Both the position numbers and the translations under genes were made by a program. Below are positions 56,762 through 64,000 of a stretch of 64,000 bases of DNA, piece by piece (the stretch's first letter is position 1; each line of letters begins with the position of its first letter). Below the pieces are notes generated by a model, which saw only the letters and a program-made list of their open reading frames with translations, was not told where the DNA came from and did no database searches. Source of the stretch: an uncultured Alphaproteobacteria bacterium (GTDB taxonomy: Bacteria; Pseudomonadota; Alphaproteobacteria; Rhodobacterales; Rhodobacteraceae); contig CACBAM010000004.1 in assembly GCA_902537215.1 (NCBI GenBank), positions 1-64,000 of the forward strand, in the 5' to 3' direction.

Positions 56762-56884
56762 TCATCCTCTTAAAAAAACAATTCTATTAATAAGATAATT
56801 GGTGGGGACGCGATCCACCCAGAAAGATATCCTATTATCAAAAGCGCTCAAACAAACAAAAAAAATTACAAAATTTTTCATCAT
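56762..56884 (-). CDS. 40-residue hydrophobic microprotein
   Basis: Starts at tandem ATG codons (56884 and 56881) that overlap the stop of the zinc-ribbon gene, and ends at 56762, where its stop overlaps the ribosome-binding site of the next ORF. The N-terminus MMKNFVIFFVCLSAF is hydrophobic and could be a short membrane or signal segment. Its support is mainly position between two better small genes. Confidence 0.35.
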   Translation of the reverse strand: MMKNFVIFFVCLSAFDNRISFWVDRVPTNYLINRIVFLRG

Positions 56885-57060
56885 TTCTTTTTGCTTTTCC
56901 AAGTACCACCATATTGGTAATTCATTCGATATTTTTTTTTGATAAGGCTTAAACAATTCTTACAAAGGAAAATCCAAGTCATCTCCCCACCGTACCGGCA
57001 TCGATATAGAACATCATCAAGTTCTTTACACTCGAAACAAACTTTTGCTCTTTTTCTCAT
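56881..57060 (-). CDS. 59-residue zinc-ribbon microprotein
   Basis: ATG 57060 to TGA 56881. Two CxxC knuckles are spaced as in zinc ribbons: VCFECKELDD near residue 8 and FLCKNCLSLI near residue 32, with YRCRYGGEMTW between them, and a basic C-terminus (YQYGGTWKSKKK). Zn binding is expected; the partner (nucleic acid or protein) is unknown. First gene of a tightly spaced minus-strand unit with the 40- and 55-residue ORFs, just downstream of repeat copy A. Confidence 0.6.
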   Translation of the reverse strand: MRKRAKVCFECKELDDVLYRCRYGGEMTWIFLCKNCLSLIKKKYRMNYQYGGTWKSKKK

Positions 57061-57169
57061 TCACCAAAGATATCAAAAAAGATCAGTAATTACAGAACGC
57101 AAATCTTTAGAAGGTCTGGAAGGCAAATTGAATACAATTACTGATGCTCATACATAAGTATTTTCTAAC

Positions 57170-57560
57170 TTCGAATTTTTGTGAATCTGAAATGACTCTG
57201 TGTCTCTTTTGTGACTTAACCGAGCAAACGCTTTTAATAAAATAAAGCGATTATTAAAAAAATGTGCATCGAGCGTACATCCAAAAAAATAGCACTTAGA
57301 AAACTGAAATGATTGCAAGTTATTGATTTAATTATATTTTTAAAAGCACTAACAAACGATGTGGCACAAATGTGCTCGTGTCTTGACACGTTTCGCTCAA
57401 ACACCATTTATTTTCAACTTTTCAAAAAAAAGGCGGGTTATGCCCAGTTCTGCCCGACTTATACCTACATGCCTTCGTTACAGTACTCTTTTATCATTTC
57501 TACAAACTTCTTGTATCTACCAAGAATATGAAAGATGAATAAATTAACTTTATATGACAT
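57170..57560. repeat. Island repeat, copy A (decayed rpsI-tail module)
   Basis: Shares long blocks with copy B (58880-59336): GTGAATCTGAAATGACTC at 57181 onward, AAATAAAGCGATTAT near 57241, a decayed rpsI tail at 57299-57314 (minus strand: SFQF preserved, remainder deleted), the palindrome CGTGTCTTGACACG at 57377-57390, CGTTTCGCTCAAACA after it and a 31-codon ORF at the right end. Compared with B about 75 bases are missing next to the rpsI-tail relic. Confidence 0.75.
57465..57560 (-). CDS. Conserved 31-residue microprotein, copy A
   Basis: Minus-strand ORF of exactly 31 codons; its sequence has the shared core HILGRYKKFVEMIKEYCNEG. The copy in repeat B (59241-59336) has the same length with no indel; 12 of 96 bases differ, five of them at silent third positions, and the nonsilent changes include E/D and K/N. 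No ribosome-binding site precedes this copy. It may be a real peptide or just part of the repeat. Confidence 0.35.
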   Translation of the reverse strand: MSYKVNLFIFHILGRYKKFVEMIKEYCNEGM

Positions 57561-57683
57561 TAATTACACTTTTATTTTCTATCACTCTTAGGAAATACAC
57601 CAATACGAATGTCTTTTTCAAATACCCCCTAGCATTTGTAATATATATCTACCAACATACATTTGTGATCTTTGTTTATCTAT

Positions 57684-57882
57684 CTAATAACCCTCAGTGT
57701 CTAGGCTATAAGGATCTAGATTAGATACACCTTGTTCATCTTCTATATATTGCTTTCTTTTCGTAATAGTAATGCCCGTCTTTTACGTGTATAAATGAAG
57801 AGGGGTTATAATGCACCTTTTTGTTCTTTATGCATTTAAAGCAACTTAGTTGACAAGCGTAATATAAAAATCTAATACTCAA
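57684..57882 (-). pseudogene. Possible frameshifted small gene
   Basis: Two overlapping minus-strand frames both look protein-like: from TTG 57882 a frame with CFKC and SSFIHVKDGHYYYEKKAIY ending at 57736, and in another frame YIEDEQGVSNLDPYSLDTEG ending at 57684. Joined by one frameshift they would give a small protein of about 65 residues. It overlaps the promoter of the divergent FkbM gene, so it is uncertain. Confidence 0.2.
57850..57878 (+). promoter_or_regulatory. Strong sigma-70-like promoter of the FkbM-family gene
   Basis: Perfect TTGACA at 57850-57855 and TAATAC at 57873-57878 with 17-base spacing. Transcription would start near 57885, about five bases before the ATG at 57890, so the mRNA would be nearly leaderless, consistent with the absence of a ribosome-binding site. 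Confidence 0.6.
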
Positions 57883-57889
57883 GATTGTA

Positions 57890-58738
57890 ATGCGAGTTAA
57901 CAAAATTAAATTTACTCACAATCAAAAAAATTACGATTTCTATTATCCAATTAGTGCAACAAAACAGACTAACGGTTTTAAGAATATTCTGACTGGCAAA
58001 TCTTACCCTTTAATTAAGAAAAATCCAAAATTGATTTTAGATGTTGGTGCTAACTTGGGATCAACAAGCATGTTTTTTGCTATCAACTACCCTAAAGCAA
58101 AAATATTCTCATTTGAGCCAACCGAAATGAACTTCAGATGGCTTCAAAAAAATACTGAGATTTTTCAGAATATTACGAGAATAAAAAAGGGAGCATACTT
58201 TAAAGATACCACAGCAAAAATTTATTTAGACTCAGAAAGCGGTGGCAGGAACTCTATTCATAAGGAGTGGACAAAATCAGACAGATACGAAACTGTTGAA
58301 TTAATCAATCTTGGAAAGTTCCTAGAAACAAATAATCTAATTGAAAAAATAGATATTTTAAAAATAGATACTGAAGGTTGTGAGGTAGATATCCTTTCTT
58401 CAATCGAGACTTATTTAGAAAATATAGATGTGATTTATTTAGAGTATCATGTAAAAGACGATCAAGAGGTTATCTTGGAGATACTTTCCAAAAGCCACAT
58501 TGTCATACAAAAAACAGCAAATGCTGAGGTACTTAGTAAAGTTAGTTCAGCACTTATTGGGAGTCTCTGTCTAGCAGACGTAACTGTAAACGGTAAAATA
58601 ATTTTAAGTGCTGGCAAAAAAATTACCGAATCCGATATAAAAGAATTTCAGAAATCTTCTGTTCAAACTGTTAAAGTTTTGTCAGATACCATGGGAGAAA
58701 TAGTTTTTCTAAATAAAAACATAGTTTCTACCGATTAA
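57890..58738 (+). CDS. FkbM family methyltransferase
   Basis: A 282-residue SAM-dependent O-methyltransferase. Motif I is LILDVGANLGSTSMFFAI near residue 47, followed by IFSFEPTEMNFRWLQKN (FkbM-type FEP), and the family signature IDILKIDTEGCEVDIL near residue 154. FkbM enzymes methylate hydroxyls of glycans or secondary metabolites; the substrate is unknown. The gene stands alone on the plus strand between direct repeats A and B, which makes it look like a cassette cargo. The last 80 residues (about 200-282) are less typical. Confidence 0.85.
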   Translation: MRVNKIKFTHNQKNYDFYYPISATKQTNGFKNILTGKSYPLIKKNPKLILDVGANLGSTSMFFAINYPKAKIFSFEPTEMNFRWLQKNTEIFQNITRIKKGAYFKDTTAKIYLDSESGGRNSIHKEWTKSDRYETVELINLGKFLETNNLIEKIDILKIDTEGCEVDILSSIETYLENIDVIYLEYHVKDDQEVILEILSKSHIVIQKTANAEVLSKVSSALIGSLCLADVTVNGKIILSAGKKITESDIKEFQKSSVQTVKVLSDTMGEIVFLNKNIVSTD

Positions 58739-58789
58739 TTTCTTGAGTATTAGGTTCATGTAGTTTTCAAACCTGTTAACCCTACTAGA

Positions 58790-58906
58790 TTACGACATTG
58801 TTTTTTGAGCCTGAATTCGCATTCTCAAGACACTTGTAAGAAAGAGATTATCTCCAAAACCTTCTATCTCTGTTTTTTCTAAGTATTGATTTGTGTTTTC
58901 TATCAT
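58790..58906 (-). CDS. 38-residue ORF starting in repeat B (MIENT type)
   Basis: ATG 58906 opens MIENTNQYLEKTEIEGFGDN and ends at 58790. Its first codons lie in the constant part of repeat B; the same opening M[I/V]ENT..YLE appears at repeat C (62848) with a different continuation, and a degraded LENT at copy A. No ribosome-binding site stands out. Confidence 0.3.
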   Translation of the reverse strand: MIENTNQYLEKTEIEGFGDNLFLTSVLRMRIQAQKTMS

Positions 58907-59336
58907 TGCATTTTTTGTGAAACTGAAACGACTCTGTGACTCTTTTGTGACTCATGATGACAAACACCTTAAATAAAATAAAGCGATTATCGAAAAATAG
59001 CCTCAAAAGTGACTCACAAAAAAAGCACTTAAAAACAACTAAGCGTGTCTTACAAAGATTTTATCAAAAACTGTAGCGTGAAAAAATCAGCGCTTTGAGA
59101 ATTGAAACGACCGCAAATTATTGATTTCAGAAATATTTTGAGAACGCTTTTAAAACGTGCATCGTGTCTTGACACGTTTCGCTCAAACATAATTTATTTT
59201 TGACTTTTCAGCAAAAACCCACTTTATGCCCAATTTCTGCCTACATGCCTACGTTACAGTACTCTTTTATCATATCTACAAACTGATTGTACCTTCCTAG
59301 AATATGAACAATGAATGAGTTAACTTTATCTGACAT
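58880..59336. repeat. Island repeat, copy B (complete rpsI-tail module)
   Basis: Most complete copy. From left to right: MIENT start region; GTGAAACTGAAACGACT at 58917; TGTGACTC direct repeat; AAATAAAATAAAGCGATTAT near 58971; a 100-base block shared with copy C (AGCACTTAAAAAC ... AACTGTAG.GTGAAAAAATCAGCG); intact rpsI-tail relic at 59087-59113; palindrome CGTGTCTTGACACG at 59163-59176; and a 31-codon ORF at 59241-59336. Same orientation as copies A and C. Confidence 0.8.
59241..59336 (-). CDS. Conserved 31-residue microprotein, copy B
   Basis: Same length and layout as copy A at 57465, with core HILGRYNQFVDMIKEYCNVG. ATG 59336 is preceded by GGGA at three bases and begins 16 bases after the stop of the small gene at 59353-59646, so it could be the last cistron of that minus-strand unit. 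No family recognised. Confidence 0.4.
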   Translation of the reverse strand: MSDKVNSFIVHILGRYNQFVDMIKEYCNVGM

Positions 59337-59352
59337 TAATCCCATTTTGCTA

Positions 59353-59646
59353 CTACCTTCTTACTGACTCAATTAAATCACCATCAAATACGAGCATATC
59401 ATGAATATCAAATGCAAATTTTTCTCTCCATTGATTTGCTTTGATACTAATTTCCTCAAAGTTTTCTTTTGTATCCACGATAGCAAAAGTTAATACGGAT
59501 AAAGGTGTAGCTCTTACCCAATGGATTTCTTGAATTCCTTCTACTTCAAACTTTAAAGATTTAATAAAATCTCTGTGACTAAATATATATTTTTCACATT
59601 CTGTTTGTGACTTAAAGTTAAAAATATTCGTTACCGTAATACTCAG
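59353..59646 (-). CDS. Small ferredoxin-like-fold protein, paralogue 2 (CTG start)
   Basis: A 97-residue paralogue of the adjacent gene at 59661. Shared blocks: IFNFKSQTECEKYI, VEGIQEIHWVRATP, NQWREKF, FDIHDMLVFDGDLIES. A stop lies four codons upstream and there is no ATG, GTG or TTG near the start; the aligned first codon is CTG at 59646, preceded by AGGGGG at five bases. Either CTG is used or the copy is dying, but the rest of the frame is intact. Fold inferred; function unknown. Confidence 0.6.
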   Translation of the reverse strand: MSITVTNIFNFKSQTECEKYIFSHRDFIKSLKFEVEGIQEIHWVRATPLSVLTFAIVDTKENFEEISIKANQWREKFAFDIHDMLVFDGDLIESVRR

Positions 59647-59660
59647 CTTTGCCCCCTAAG

Positions 59661-59948
59661 CTAGTTTCTAAATGAATCTATTAATTCACCATCAAATACT
59701 AGAGTATCATGAATACCAAAGTCGTGCTGTTCTCTCCACTTATTTGCTATTCCTTTTATAACATCCGCATGCTCCTTTGATTTTAAAATAGAAAAAATCA
59801 ACAACGATTCTGGAGTCGCACGTACCCAATGTATCTCCTGTATCCCTTCAACTTCGATTGCTTGCATAAATTCTTTGTGGCTTGCAATGTACTTGTCACA
59901 TTCTGTTTTGGACTTAAAGTTAAAAATATCTGTTCTTGTAATGCTCAA
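59661..59948 (-). CDS. Small ferredoxin-like-fold protein, paralogue 1 (TTG start)
   Basis: A 95-residue protein starting at TTG 59948 (no ATG upstream before a stop): SITRTDIFNFKSKTECDKYI, EGIQEIHWVRATPESLLIFS, WREQHDFGIHDTLVFDGELI. Strand-helix pattern resembles dimeric alpha/beta-barrel small proteins (antibiotic-monooxygenase-like), but no catalytic motif is recognised. Tandem duplicate of 59353-59646, in the unit GST, HCCA isomerase, paralogue 1, paralogue 2. Confidence 0.65.
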   Translation of the reverse strand: MSITRTDIFNFKSKTECDKYIASHKEFMQAIEVEGIQEIHWVRATPESLLIFSILKSKEHADVIKGIANKWREQHDFGIHDTLVFDGELIDSFRN

Positions 59949-59949
59949 T

Positions 59950-60576
59950 TTATTTTTCGCTCTCTCTTAGGCACTCTATCGCATCCTCAAGTCTATCATC
60001 ACCCCAAAAAATCTCATTTTCCACAGTAAATGATGGAGCTCCAAAAATCCCCTTAGTTAAAGCTTCCTTAGTATTAGCATTATATTCATTCGCAATCACT
60101 TGTTGTTGCGATTTTTCTAAGACTTGCACCAAGTTTTTTTCGAGGTTTTTAAATGTCTCTTCCAAATTCCGTTCAGAGCCAGCTTCCTTACCTTCTAAAA
60201 ACCATACCTTATACGTTTCTCTGAAATATTCTAAATACCAACCTTCTTTATTCGCTACCAAACCAATTTTATTAGCTAAATCGAATTCTTGTAATGGGTA
60301 TGGAACTGGAGTTTTAGGTACTGGTAAACCATATTTCTTTGCTCGCCTTTCAATATCCCGCCACATGTATCTTGTTTTTTCCTTCTTTTCTGGAGGAAAG
60401 GGAATATTATTTTGGGCTTTCATTATATTTCTTATACTAAAAGGCTTAATAAGAAGTTTTAAGTTCTTAGTTTTTCTTACCTCCTCTAGTCTTAACGCCG
60501 TAAGATAAGTGTATGTGCTTCCAATAGATAGCCAAGCAGTTAATGTTCTTGAAAATTTACTATCCACTTCACTCAA
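59950..60576 (-). CDS. 2-hydroxychromene-2-carboxylate isomerase / DsbA-like (kappa GST) family protein
   Basis: A thioredoxin-fold enzyme of the HCCA isomerase group: WLSIGSTYTYLTALRLEEV near the N-terminus carries the active-site Ser, followed by the helical insert, then LTKGIFGAPSFTVENEIFWG with the cis-Pro loop and DDRLEDAIECL. It likely acts with glutathione on aromatic or other electrophiles. No ATG exists; TTG 60576 with GGGG upstream is chosen, GTG 60567 and GTG 60624 are alternatives. About 208 residues. The start region overlaps the 3' end of the GST gene. Confidence 0.78.
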   Translation of the reverse strand: MSEVDSKFSRTLTAWLSIGSTYTYLTALRLEEVRKTKNLKLLIKPFSIRNIMKAQNNIPFPPEKKEKTRYMWRDIERRAKKYGLPVPKTPVPYPLQEFDLANKIGLVANKEGWYLEYFRETYKVWFLEGKEAGSERNLEETFKNLEKNLVQVLEKSQQQVIANEYNANTKEALTKGIFGAPSFTVENEIFWGDDRLEDAIECLRESEK

Positions 60577-61240
60577 TATATCCCCTGTTGTAATTCGATG
60601 GATAAGTCTTTCTAACCCACTCACAAATTTTTGGATTATTGTCTACATTTTTGAAGATTTTCGTTATTTTTGGATAATTCACAAAATACGGCTGAGGTAT
60701 TCCTGCAACCAAGTCTGAGGCAAGCCAACCAATACCTCTCCATATAGCAATATCTGCAATAGTCATTTCTTTTCCCACTATCCAAGTTTGATTTGCAGAA
60801 ATATTATCCTCTAACATATCCAGTTTTCTTTTTAATTCTCCTTCAGCTAATATCCTACGATGCTGAATTTTTTCATCTTCTGTTAATGGACTGTTCGATG
60901 GTATATAAACCAAGTTAGTTAAATCAGTAACGAAATCGATGAATTGATCAATTAAAGCACAGCTAATACTATCCTCTGATGGGTATAACCCAGATAATTT
61001 TCCACAGAATCTTGCTATTGCTCCAGTCTGAGCAATCGGCACACCATCCACAACCAGGCAAGGTATTTGATGAAAAGGCAGCTTTGTACCATCTTTTAAA
61101 AAGCCAGTTTCTTTAGCAGAACGAAACTCCTCGAGAGTAATTCGTTTGTCATTAAAACTGATACCACCGATAAACAATGGTATTCTTGCTAACTCTATTC
61201 TCCAAAAAGGATAATCTAAATATATCAAAGTTACATTCAT
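60569..61240 (-). CDS. Glutathione S-transferase family protein
   Basis: A 223-residue GST. The N-terminal thioredoxin-like domain contains LPFHQIPCLVVDGVPIAQTG near residue 55 (cis-Pro and glutathione gamma-glutamyl contact, with QT in place of QS), and the helical C-domain has WIVGKEMTIADIAIWRGIGW (N-capping box with Asp) near residue 157. ATG 61240 is preceded by GGAG at six bases; a TTG 12 bases upstream lacks support. Heads a unit with the HCCA isomerase, both glutathione-linked. Confidence 0.82.
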   Translation of the reverse strand: MNVTLIYLDYPFWRIELARIPLFIGGISFNDKRITLEEFRSAKETGFLKDGTKLPFHQIPCLVVDGVPIAQTGAIARFCGKLSGLYPSEDSISCALIDQFIDFVTDLTNLVYIPSNSPLTEDEKIQHRRILAEGELKRKLDMLEDNISANQTWIVGKEMTIADIAIWRGIGWLASDLVAGIPQPYFVNYPKITKIFKNVDNNPKICEWVRKTYPSNYNRGYIE

Positions 61241-61363
61241 TTCATACTCCAACGATTAGCCCTATATACGAACCTAGACAACTTTACCTTTAGTTCATTA
61301 AGTTACAAAACTTAAAATATTAAAAAATGAGAAATGCTGTTGAAAGTTTAAAAGGGCTAATAT

Positions 61364-61780
61364 TCAGCTGAGTTTTTCCAAATAAGAACGCATTACTTTG
61401 ATGTTTACACGTGGAGCGTCAATTTGAGTTGCCATCGTCGCAAAAAATTTGTCACCACCATTAGAAGAAAGTCTGTCAATTATAGTTTGCTCATCTACTG
61501 CAAACCAATGGCAGAAAAAAAAATCTCCACGTCCATAAAACATTTGGTAAAGCAATGCATAATCTGACACCTCAAAGTTGTTATTAAAATCTCCCTCGAC
61601 TAGTGCTCTATCTTTTAAGAGCTTAAAGAAGCTTTGTTTTAATTCGATACTTTCATTCCCGAACCAATCTGAATTCTTTTTTCGATGACTATTCACTTCT
61701 CGAAACTCTTTTCTTACCTTTGCAGAATGAAACGTGTGTGTTGCGATATAGTGCTTAAGCTTTGGTTTTTTTTCACTCAT
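61364..61780 (-). CDS. Small protein with THTFHS...FCHW signature, copy 2
   Basis: A 138-residue paralogue of 55487-55828, about 25 residues longer because of an insert (LLKDRALVEGDFNNNFEVSD). Shared motifs: KHYIATHTFHSAKVRKEF, DFFFCHWFAVDEQTIIDRL, GGDKFFATMAT. ATG 61780 has GGAG nine bases upstream. Conserved His, Cys-His and Trp could bind a metal, but this is a guess. Function unknown. Confidence 0.65.
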   Translation of the reverse strand: MSEKKPKLKHYIATHTFHSAKVRKEFREVNSHRKKNSDWFGNESIELKQSFFKLLKDRALVEGDFNNNFEVSDYALLYQMFYGRGDFFFCHWFAVDEQTIIDRLSSNGGDKFFATMATQIDAPRVNIKVMRSYLEKLS

Positions 61781-61890
61781 TTTCAACTACTCCTGAATAT
61801 GTGAATGAATTTTAAACATACAACATTTGAACTTTTTGATAAAATAAAAGTCGATCAATGAGGGTATTTAGAAGTGATTGAGGGCACAAT

Positions 61891-62217
61891 ATGACTTATT
61901 TCGATAAAATGGTAAAAGATATGCGGAACAAGGATCTGGATGCTATTCAGGATTGGTTACACCCTGATTTTTTATTTGTTGCTGATTTTGAAATGCTCAC
62001 TAGAGAAGACTGGCTTGAGGAAACTAAGAAAGAGTTCAATAGAAATGAAGTCACACTTCATGATAATGCTAAATGTACTTTGGAGAATGAGCACATAGTT
62101 GTTTTCGAACAAAAGTACGTTCGTGAAGGACAATTAGTTCTATCAGTAAATTCGACGCACTTTAGAGATGGAAAACCGTGGAGAACTATAATTAATAGAA
62201 TTCCTATTGAAGAATAA
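61891..62217 (+). CDS. NTF2-like/SnoaL-fold protein
   Basis: A 108-residue protein with the SnoaL/DUF4440 pattern: MTYFDKMVKDMRNKDLDAIQ helix, DWLHPDFLFVADF, then antiparallel strands (ENEHIVVFEQKYVREGQLVL) and a final PWRTIINRIP. GAGGG precedes the ATG at six bases. Members include ketosteroid isomerase-like and unknown enzymes. Overlapped by 11 bases at most with the next gene's upstream frame; probably in one unit with it. Confidence 0.68.
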   Translation: MTYFDKMVKDMRNKDLDAIQDWLHPDFLFVADFEMLTREDWLEETKKEFNRNEVTLHDNAKCTLENEHIVVFEQKYVREGQLVLSVNSTHFRDGKPWRTIINRIPIEE

Positions 62218-62236
62218 GCAAAAAAAGGAAATTAAA

Positions 62237-62524
62237 ATGACACCAACTAACGTCGTATCAATGGATTTTGAAACAAAAGAGGCTATGGAAGATTTTCTGA
62301 ACACGTATGAAAGAGACAGTCCCACTCTATACCCTGATGCTGAAATGCTATTGATGATTAAAACAACTGAAACAAGCTGTGTGGGCGTTTCAGTTTATCC
62401 CAACGAAGAAGCGCGTAGTCTTGCTGAAAGTCGTACATCAGGCAAACTAAAATATCTTGTTAAGGAGAATTTCAGACTGTCTGGAGATATGGTTATAAAG
62501 CACGTATTTACAAATAAAGGATAA
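62237..62524 (+). CDS. Small alpha/beta protein of unknown function
   Basis: A 95-residue protein: TNVVSMDFETKEAMEDFLNT, DAEMLLMIKTTETSCVGVSV, YPNEEARSLAESRTSGKLKY. The helix-strand pattern and YPNEEAR segment resemble antibiotic-monooxygenase-like or similar ferredoxin folds, as in the tandem paralogues at 59.4-59.9 kb. ATG 62237 with AAAGGAA upstream is preferred to a TTG at 62207. Function unknown. Confidence 0.6.
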   Translation: MTPTNVVSMDFETKEAMEDFLNTYERDSPTLYPDAEMLLMIKTTETSCVGVSVYPNEEARSLAESRTSGKLKYLVKENFRLSGDMVIKHVFTNKG

Positions 62525-62529
62525 TAAAA

Positions 62530-62592
62530 ATGGCTGATTTCTTTCCCAAAGTAAATTACATAAAGTTTGATGATACTTATATATTTAGTTAG
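62530..62592 (+). other. 20-codon ORF, possible remnant of a larger gene
   Basis: ATG 62530 to TAG 62590 encodes MADFFPKVNYIKFDDTYIFS, five bases after the preceding stop. The first dozen residues resemble the N-terminus of xylose isomerase, but the similarity is short and may be chance. Confidence 0.2.
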
Positions 62593-62713
62593 GCACGTCC
62601 CCACTTTTAATAGTTAAGATTAAACCAAGAGCCACTAAAGCAAGTAGCACCAGATAAATTACTAAACTGTAGAGAATTGCAGTTTCCCATGTTTTTAAGA
62701 GGAATGTTTTCAT
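62585..62713 (-). CDS. 42-residue single-span membrane microprotein
   Basis: ATG 62713 to TAA 62585. A short basic-amphipathic N-terminus (MKTFLLKTWETA) leads to one hydrophobic helix (SLVIYLVLLALVALGLILTI) and a short polar tail. The ATG overlaps the stop of the upstream small frame by four bases (ATGA). Single-span peptides of this size are often regulators or toxins, but nothing here decides that. Confidence 0.5.
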   Translation of the reverse strand: MKTFLLKTWETAILYSLVIYLVLLALVALGLILTIKSGDVPN

Positions 62714-62848
62714 TTATTAATCGCTATATTGTTTAATGCAGAAGCAACTGCTTTTTCATCAAGAGTGCCATCTCGTAGCTGAGTAATTATTTCAGCAGCC
62801 AACTCAATGTCTTTTGCTTTCTAGGTAGAGAAAAGTGTTTTCAACCAT
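62710..62848 (-). pseudogene. Frameshifted small ORF starting in repeat C (MVENT type)
   Basis: ATG 62848 opens MVENTFLYLE; the frame then stops early, while another frame, offset by one base, continues with KDIELAAEIITQLRDGTLDE and KAVASALNNIAINK to a stop at 62710. One inserted or deleted base near 62821 would join them into about 45 residues. Its first codons match those of the ORF in repeat B. Confidence 0.35.
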
Positions 62849-62993
62849 CGCATTTTTCGTGAATCTGAAAAGATAACGTGCATCAAACGTGCATTCAAAA
62901 AAAGCACTTAAAAACGACTTAGTGCTTGTTTTATAACAATTTTATTAAAAACTGTAGAGTGAAAAAATCAGCGTTTTGAAAACTGAAAAGATC
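62821..62993. repeat. Island repeat, copy C, running into the 3' end of rpsI
   Basis: Shares with copy B the start region of the MxENT ORF, GTGAATCTGAAAAGAT at 62859-62874, AGCACTTAAAAAC near 62903 and AACTGTAGAGTGAAAAAATC up to the rpsI stop; the motif GAAAACTGAAAAGATC at 62978-62993 is the rpsI coding tail. It lacks the AAATAAAGCGATTAT block found in A and B. Confidence 0.75.
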
Positions 62994-63423
62994 TTCTAGC
63001 TTTAGGCTTTCCATATTTTTTACGTTCAACAACTCTACTGTCTCTGGTTAGAAATCCGGCGGTCTTTAAAGCTCCCCGTAACTCGCCATCAAACAGAGTG
63101 AGCGCTTTTGATAGTCCATGTCTCACGGCGCCTGCTTGCCCGGAAAGACCTCCGCCTTTTACAGTCGCCATTACATCAAATTGATTTTCTACACTAGTAA
63201 CCGAAAATGCTTGTTGAATAATCATTTGCAGAGTTGGGCGAGCGAAATATTCATTCACTGGTTTTTTATTAACCGTTATTTTACCGCTACCTTTCTTTAT
63301 CCATACTCTAGCGACAGCATCTTTCCTTTTCCCAGTGGAATAAGCCCTTCCTAGGCTATCGAGTTTTGGCTTTTCACTATTTTCACTAGTTGGAGTGCTT
63401 ACTACTTCCTCAACTTCAGCCAT
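62968..63423 (-). CDS. rpsI: 30S ribosomal protein S9
   Basis: A 151-residue S9 with an acidic N-terminal extension of about 25 residues ([15 protein letters not shown]), then [59 protein letters not shown] and the conserved basic tail [17 protein letters not shown] that reaches the ribosomal P site. Its start overlaps the rplM stop by one base. Its 3' end is the anchor of the island: relics of this tail occur in repeat copies B and A. Confidence 0.97.
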
Positions 63424-63890
63424 TATCTAACTCTCCTGGTATTTTTTTCATTAATATCCTTTATATCAAATATCTCTGGGCTTTGACCTTCGTGTGGATG
63501 GCTTTCCCCCTTATATATTCTCAAATTTGTCATTTGCTTCCTAGATAAAGGACCACCCGGCAGCATGCGCTTTACTGCTTTTTCAATAACTCTCTCGGGA
63601 AACTGACCTTCTAACACATCACTAGCTACTCTAGATTTAATTCCACCTGGATAACCTGTGTGCCAGTAATACGTTTTAGTGTCTCTTTTATTTCCAGTCA
63701 AATGTACCTTTTCAGCGTTTATAACTATGACGTTATCACCCATATCCATATGAGGGGTATATGTAGGCTTTTCTTTTCCTCTAAGGATAGTGGCAACCTT
63801 AGCGGCCAAGCGTCCCAAAACAACACCATCGGCGTCTATTAAAATCCACTTTTTCTGTATCTCAGAGGGCTTTATTGAAAAGGTTTTCAT
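63423..63890 (-). CDS. rplM: 50S ribosomal protein L13
   Basis: A 155-residue L13 with [53 protein letters not shown] and [24 protein letters not shown] precedes the ATG. rplM-rpsI is a near-universal bacterial operon and shares a TAATG stop/start here. Confidence 0.97.
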
Positions 63891-63914
63891 AAAAATATCC
63901 TAAATCCGTGTAAT

Positions 63915-63942
63915 CTTTTAACCGATTAATTCCCTAGGTCAA
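63915..63942 (-). promoter_or_regulatory. Candidate promoter of rplM-rpsI
   Basis: On the minus strand TTGACC (63937-63942) is followed after 16 bases by TAAAAG (63915-63920), about 25 bases before the rplM ATG. The -10 match is modest. Confidence 0.35.
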
Positions 63943-64000
63943 TAGCAAAGTGTCATGTTTATCTTTATTTTTAGCAAAATTACTTTTTTACGGGTCTAGC

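What the first reader, a model, noticed from the sequence alone, without database searches (positions are those of the whole stretch)
57170..62994. Tandem module array at the 3' end of rpsI marked by displaced rpsI tails
Three same-orientation repeat copies lie downstream of rpsI. C contains the live rpsI tail; B contains a complete but dead tail; A a truncated one. Decay increases with distance from rpsI. Elements that insert at the 3' end of a gene and carry a replacement tail leave exactly this record, and rpsI 3' ends are known targets of integrative elements in other bacteria. Here modules are small, carry accessory genes (GST pair, FkbM, microproteins) and no integrase is seen, so the mobilising machinery is unknown; recombination between repeats, or an integrase supplied in trans, are options.
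Basis: partly seen in the sequence, partly recalled or inferred. Interest (0 to 1): 0.86.

Follow-up and report, generated by a model that had tools for sequence, protein, structure and literature searches.

The report
Stacked mobile elements behind rpsI
Behind the ribosomal-protein gene rpsI this bacterium carries a stack of worn-down mobile DNA elements, each of which seems to have entered at the end of rpsI and brought a fresh copy of that end; related bacteria still hold intact versions with the recombinase that most likely put them there.

Summary
Copies C, B and A are left ends of integrative elements: rpsI tail, terminator-like hairpin, 11-bp-period repeats, start of a tyrosine integrase. 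Integrase remnants stand at all three window heads. Three same-genus genomes carry the intact 486-aa integrase 184 nt after the rpsI stop; a fourth is cut by a contig end. All 35 matches to the head, in 18 of 22 genus genomes, lie behind rpsI in one orientation. For two species pairs the integrase is 87-91% identical at fourfold sites against 41-44% for rplM+rpsI; for the third pair 91% against 68%. Cargo differs between species; a 1.5-kb unit without integrase, bounded by rpsI tails, sits first in one species and behind an integrase element in three. Outside the genus 11 of 14 related integrases also sit behind rpsI, 2 do not, 1 is untestable. In kind this is tandem accretion, known from streptococci and tRNA islands; the alphaproteobacterial family was not found in the paper searches made. 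How units pass between cells is unknown.

The parts
62968..63423 (-). rpsI (ribosomal protein S9), integration target; its last codons are taken to come with the element
62875..62994 (-). Copy C, left end of unit 1: live rpsI tail, terminator-like hairpin (about 62896-62928), paired 11-bp-period repeats (62875-62894)
62710..62848 (-). Integrase pseudogene of unit 1: first codons fused to the last 37 codons (109/113 nt identical to L043); the middle is deleted
62207..62524 (+). Cargo F4, small protein without Pfam match (95% DNA identity to a copy in L039 unit 1)
61891..62217 (+). Cargo F9, DUF4440
61364..61786 (-). Cargo F14, no Pfam match
60569..61252 (-). Cargo F15, glutathione S-transferase-like
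   Evidence: (homologue from L033)
59950..60624 (-). Cargo F16, DSBA-like thioredoxin-fold protein
59661..59948 (-). Cargo F4, second copy; a decayed third copy at about 59353-59645
59241..59336 (-). 31-aa ORF in the right end of unit 1; relatives of it in L031, L041, L043 and in unit 2
59081..59240 (-). Right end of unit 1 joined to displaced rpsI tail B (complete tail at 59087-59110)
58799..59080 (-). Copy B, left end of unit 2: hairpin, repeats, first ~36 codons of the integrase (58799-58906, 98/109 nt, one gap), the rest lost
57890..58738 (+). Cargo of unit 2, FkbM methyltransferase
57465..57560 (-). 31-aa ORF in the right end of unit 2
57284..57374 (-). Right end of unit 2 joined to degenerate displaced rpsI tail A
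57154..57302 (-). Copy A, left end of unit 3: repeats and a few codons of the integrase start

Best explanation
The array is the decayed record of repeated site-specific integrations into the 3' end of rpsI by elements of one family. Inferred mechanism: a tyrosine integrase, encoded just inside the element's left end, recombines a core within the last ~20 nt of rpsI with the same sequence on the circular element. The element supplies the end of rpsI plus a terminator, so rpsI stays intact and insulated, and the old tail and terminator are pushed to the element's far end. As the live rpsI end stays the site of choice, each newcomer lands nearest to rpsI, and older elements are displaced and tend to decay. 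Units that lost the integrase keep both att ends and may be moved by an integrase supplied in trans. Shown by sequence: family, site, orientation, tail copies at element ends, stacking, horizontal spread, integrase remnants in the window. Inferred: the crossover position, the role of the paired repeats as arm-type binding sites, movement in trans. Unknown: the route between cells.
For: Integrase remnants at the window's three heads. Intact integrase 184 nt after the rpsI stop in L039, L042, L043, the L042 copy matching PF00589 at E 3.7e-12. 35 of 35 head matches in 18 of 22 genus genomes behind rpsI in one orientation. Between the four integrase-bearing loci the rpsI body is 75-90% identical, the tail 92-100%, the leader 93-98% and the integrase start 98-100%, in all six pairs. 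Fourfold-site identity of the integrase 87% and 91% against 41% and 44% core for L039-L042 and L039-L043, 91% against 68% for L042-L043. Cargo fourfold identity exceeds core by over 15 points in 92 of 215 pairs, is lower by as much in 18 (most similar paralogue pair chosen). L041 lacks the integrase element that L039, L042, L043 carry in front of the same 1.5-kb unit. Displaced heads in 9 of 15 loci with over 4 kb of downstream sequence, 16 copies (11 of them trained the profile); a tenth locus, L037, has a displaced piece. Beyond the genus 11 of 14 integrases behind rpsI (28-30, 65-67), plus L050.
Against: No circular form or activity was seen. No displaced tail was found behind the distant integrases in the DNA at hand (L050 3.2 kb, L069 17.7 kb, G450 38.9 kb, L072 1.8 kb, L074 1.2 kb), so tail displacement is shown only in the genus. 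2 of 14 distant integrases (L077, L086) have no rpsI within their ~1.5 kb flanks. L031 has its better-preserved copy farther away. Six of 15 loci show no displaced copy. In 18 of 215 pairs cargo is clearly less similar than core.
Confidence: 0.92

Rival explanations
1. Local tandem duplication or slippage of the rpsI end made the repeats; the genes between them came by other routes.
For: The copies are direct repeats beside the parent gene.
Against: Each window copy carries integrase start codons that rpsI does not have; intact integrases stand at the same place; the right-end sequence before displaced tails is not rpsI sequence; identity between species is higher inside the element than in rpsI.
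Confidence: 0.03
2. Integrase elements built the site, but the small units without integrase now spread by homologous recombination between rpsI and the heads (for example after DNA uptake), not by an integrase in trans.
For: Units without integrase share heads of about 200 nt and lie between homologous flanks; cargo moves between species.
Against: rpsI differs by 10-25% between the species compared, and similarity of the 1.5-kb unit stops at its left tail, as site-specific exchange would give; recombination through the heads could give that too.
Confidence: 0.35
3. The elements are satellites packaged by an unknown helper phage, with rpsI as their attachment site.
For: Small size, tyrosine integrase, no relaxase or other transfer family among the ORFs scanned.
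Against: No viral contig matched six peptide patterns of the integrase or two exact head patterns; only partial matches of 27-28% identity in 7 of 50,697 phage records; no phage structural family among the proteins scanned.
Confidence: 0.2
4. The array is an integron-like cassette array.
For: Small genes in units with repeated ends, variable between species.
Against: The integrase matches phage integrase families (PF00589, phrog_1) and lies inside the mobile unit; repeats carry an rpsI tail and a hairpin; cargo lies in both orientations.
Confidence: 0.02

Closest known systems
IMESag-rpsI of Streptococcus agalactiae (PMC5090054, abstract and passages; PMC5704250, passages) and streptococcal ICEs at rpsI (PMC4701971, abstract and passages)
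   Same: Tyrosine integrase, 3' end of rpsI; IMESag-rpsI is about 9 kb.
   Different: Those encode a relaxase or a conjugation module, and the IMESag-rpsI paper found no strain with two copies; here no relaxase was found among the ORFs scanned, copies are stacked, and units can be as small as 0.8-1.5 kb.
CIMEs and tandem accretion (review PMC5704250, passages)
   Same: Elements that lost integration genes but kept att sites, stacked with incoming elements.
   Different: Described there for ICEs and IMEs; here one genus shows it at one ribosomal gene with units in which no conjugation gene was found.
Additive flexible genomic islands and tycheposons (PMC10872708, abstract and passages)
   Same: Variable cargo in aquatic plankton; the additive island shows recurring copies of the last 20 bp of a tRNA gene.
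   Different: The anchor is a tRNA gene there and a protein gene here; the heads here include a hairpin and paired repeats.

Membership tests
Site-specific integrative element (tyrosine integrase type) | Tyrosine recombinase gene next to an att site | tested here: met
   in relatives; only remnants in the window
Site-specific integrative element (tyrosine integrase type) | Direct repeats of the target end at both element ends | tested here: met
   In the genus. Not found for the distant integrases
Site-specific integrative element (tyrosine integrase type) | Excision and circular form | not testable with these tools
   No reads
Integrative and mobilizable or conjugative element | Relaxase or conjugation genes | tested here: not met
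   None among the ORFs that one search lists for the three integrase elements, each scanned against Pfam itself or by one member of its family (21, 22, 73); shorter ORFs unique to one locus were not scanned
Phage satellite | Phage-derived packaging or capsid-remodelling genes, or packaging by a helper | tested here: inconclusive
   No such family in Pfam or for the 9 proteins scanned against PHROGs; packaging untested
Integron | Integron integrase outside the cassettes, attC sites | tested here: not met
   Integrase matches phage integrase families and lies inside the unit (21, 23); repeats carry the rpsI tail. No search for attC was made
CIME | Both att ends kept, integrase lost | tested here: met
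   Window units 1 and 2; 1.5-kb unit in L041, L039, L043 (68). Origin from a conjugative element not shown

The most novel reading that the evidence does not exclude
An rpsI-specific integrase family in Alphaproteobacteria sustains a shared pool of minimal cassettes of 0.8-1.5 kb (one or two small genes between two rpsI tails, no transfer gene) that are inserted one after another behind a ribosomal gene and move between species in trans: a cassette system that works somewhat like an integron but is built on a phage-type integrase and a protein-gene end.
Probability: 0.4. Interest if true: 0.8.

Novelty: new variant of a known kind. Interest (0 to 1): 0.64.

Why it matters
It gives a concrete, testable route by which small-genome (probably marine) bacteria gain and lose accessory genes: one fixed landing site, an ordered stack of insertions, and an integrase whose target is known. 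The rpsI end is an attachment site in streptococci; a second family at the same gene across Alphaproteobacteria suggests that this gene end is reused. Reading the DNA behind rpsI could uncover many more such stacks.

Tried and rejected
AlphaFold model of the integrase from four sequences: mean pLDDT 38, discarded. Gene transfer agent as carrier: GTA_TIM family in 0 of 22 genus genomes, found in 1 of 14 control genomes; one family in draft genomes, so weak evidence. Right ends of the distant elements: no displaced tail in the DNA at hand; a 13-of-14-nt match to the tail 34 kb behind rpsI in G450 is no better than the other chance pieces listed. Similar DNA in phage records for window 56800-64000: none. 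A second core-like site at the end of the head was considered; by eye the resemblance is slight, no test was run, and it was dropped. Integron and local duplication were rejected as stated under rivals. Four other integrase-like matches in the genus (L056, L060, L061, L062) served as a contrast: no rpsI in their loci.
Full report
Observation. The window holds rpsI on the minus strand (62968-63423) and three same-orientation copies of a module at its 3' side: C with the live tail, B with a complete displaced tail at 59087-59110, A with a truncated one near 57284-57312. The similarity goes past the tail. It includes a hairpin followed by T's that looks like an intrinsic terminator (-7.2 kcal/mol, z -2.3 in C; -5.5 kcal/mol, z -1.0 in B, so weak there; -11.3 kcal/mol, z -4.7 for the form seen in L043) and a pair of repeats with an 11-bp period.

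Relatives. rpsI was found in 17 of 22 genomes of the genus, the window's own included; an 18th, G021, has a contig that starts in the rpsI tail. In the 16 relatives I took the DNA behind rpsI, from 0.2 to 16 kb as contigs allowed, and compared the first 13 kb. Eleven loci, the window included, reach a shared aminotransferase-like core gene; no two of the eleven have the same set of listed ORFs in between (gene names for core genes are from my reading of the sequences). The site is nearly empty in L045 and in G021, where a GNAT gene is the only listed match between rpsI and the core genes; L045 has a displaced tail behind it, about 0.8 kb from rpsI. Displaced heads were found in 9 of the 15 loci that have over 4 kb of downstream sequence, 16 copies in all; L040 and L044 were too short to tell and are left out. 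Eleven of the copies trained the profile; of the other five, two were already seen and three (two in L042, one in L045) are new. The L031 copy at 2299 is a head without the rpsI tail. Of the six loci without a copy, L037 has a displaced head piece.

The integrase. In L039, L042 and L043 a 486-aa protein starts 184 nt after the rpsI stop codon, on the same strand; the L042 copy matches Phage_integrase (PF00589, E 3.7e-12) and phrog_1 integrase (E 2.2e-27). In L044 the contig ends after its first 35 residues, 100% identical. Residues that I take, from recall, as catalytic (R286, K317, R396, Y428) are invariant in seven family members. The window holds its ruins: the last 37 codons at 62710-62822 (109 of 113 nt identical) fused to its first codons, the first ~36 codons at 58799-58906 (98 of 109 nt), and a few codons in copy A. 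Of 30 heads tested, 15 score above all 200 shuffles for the integrase start (shuffles of single bases). So the modules are left ends of integrase-bearing elements.

Site specificity. The 219-nt head has 35 matches in 18 of 22 genomes; every one is behind rpsI in one orientation, comparing. Some are pieces of one head. The four genomes without a match (G007, G011, G016, G020) also gave no rpsI. Four other integrase-like matches of the genus have no rpsI in their loci.

Mobility. The integrase is 87% (L039-L042) and 91% (L039-L043) identical at fourfold sites while rplM plus rpsI give 41% and 44%; for L042-L043 it is 91% against 68%. The accompanying serine resolvase gives 89%, 89% and 90%. Along the DNA, the rpsI body is 75-90% identical between the four integrase-bearing loci, the tail 92-100%, the leader 93-98% and the first integrase codons 98-100%; for L042-L043 the step is small (90% to 93%). 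Of 215 cargo comparisons, cargo exceeds core by more than 15 points in 92 and is lower by as much in 18; where a genome had several paralogues the most similar pair was used, which favours high values. The window's own GST gene is an example: 88% at fourfold sites to L042 against 45% core.

A unit without integrase. A unit of 1.54 kb with F25 (no Pfam or PHROGs match) and F26 (antibiotic biosynthesis monooxygenase family) lies between two rpsI tails. It is next to rpsI in L041 and second, behind an integrase element of 7.4-10 kb, in L039 and L043; in L042 it is second as well, about 1.45 kb long, with a decayed right tail. L041 and L039 are 95-100% identical through the middle ~1.1 kb of the unit and 83-94% towards its ends; they fall to unrelated sequence left of the left tail, while right of the right tail the next head continues at 69-84% before similarity ends. 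L041 is thus the state without the integrase element, and the unit itself is discrete.

Beyond the genus. A Caspian metagenome genome (L050) has a 51% identical integrase behind rpsI. Searches at E <= 1e-40 of 385 genomes of the class and 149 of the family (profile A2) and 398 of the phylum and 390 of the order (profile A3; overlapping sets) gave 14 distinct loci: 11 behind rpsI, 2 without rpsI in their flanks (L077, L086), 1 untestable because its contig ends (L067). A3 was made from rpsI-site integrases, one of which (G520) it found again, counted once. The gap between rpsI and the integrase is about 0.15-0.2 kb in nine of the eleven, about 0.6 kb in L083 (a broken gene) and 1.3 kb in L081. 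The paired 11-bp-period repeats recur with different letters in L064, L065 and L068 (0, 0 and 4 of 200 shuffles as good); in the genus the same test gives 1, 10, 0, 0 of 200 for L039, L042, L043, L044 and 4 of 200 for copy C; it did not single them out in L050 (73 of 200) and L066 (77 of 200).

Mechanism. The best account is site-specific integration at the rpsI end, with replacement of tail and terminator, repeated in tandem, with decay of older elements. Tail displacement is shown in the genus only. Movement in trans of units without integrase, arm-type function of the repeats and the carrier between cells are inference or unknown. Among the ORFs that one search lists for the three integrase elements, scanned themselves or by a family member, no relaxase, type IV secretion or phage structural family was seen; besides the integrase and the resolvase, one small L042 protein matches the serine Recombinase family.

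Known kinds. rpsI is a documented target of streptococcal ICEs and of IMESag-rpsI, and accretion with integrase loss is described in a review (PMC4701971, PMC5090054, PMC5704250; passages read). An island with recurring tRNA ends is described in freshwater plankton (PMC10872708, passages). Paper searches: rpsI with genomic island, integrase and Alphaproteobacteria (2 papers, in the passages seen neither on this); rpsI gene with integration site and integrative (6, by title Firmicutes or the review); ribosomal protein S9 with integrase, genomic island and insertion site (7, by title Firmicutes); rpsI with tyrosine recombinase, attachment site and Proteobacteria (3, streptococcal or the review); rpsI with Rhodobacteraceae and integrase (0); rpsI with roseobacter and genomic island (0). 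None showed the alphaproteobacterial family. Most subscription papers are not held, so this is not proof of novelty.

Host. One search names four of the relatives as uncultured Alphaproteobacteria isolates AG-430-P14, AG-349-J18, AG-337-E14 and AG-895-K23. That they are marine single-cell genomes, and that the very large family in the genome set is Rhodobacteraceae, are inferences of mine and not tool results.

Noticed in passing
window 59241-59336 and 57465-57560 (minus); L031, L041, L043: A 31-aa ORF is kept in the right ends of five units (in L031 it runs on to 51 aa, in L041 it starts with GTG); differences lean to third codon positions, but the pairs are not independent.
   Followed up: partly
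window 59353-59948 and 62207-62524: Three copies of one small protein family (F4) sit in the same unit, two in tandem (one decayed) and one inverted near the other end, as if cargo were duplicated or assembled by repeat exchange.
   Followed up: no
window 62818-62848; L036 head: The integrase deletion in copy C and the one behind rpsI in G002 (L036) join nearly the same points, at a short shared stretch; either inherited or a recurrent microhomology deletion.
   Followed up: partly
L042 around 11430: A third tail is joined directly to the sequence around the integrase start, with hairpin and repeats between them missing.
   Followed up: no
L032, L034, L036, L038: C-terminal pieces of the serine resolvase that accompanies intact integrase elements survive in genomes where no intact integrase was found.
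   Followed up: no
L066 and L084: Near these distant rpsI integrases lie large genes that look like a helicase or restriction-type protein, judged by eye from translations, so their cargo may be defence rather than small enzymes.
   Followed up: no
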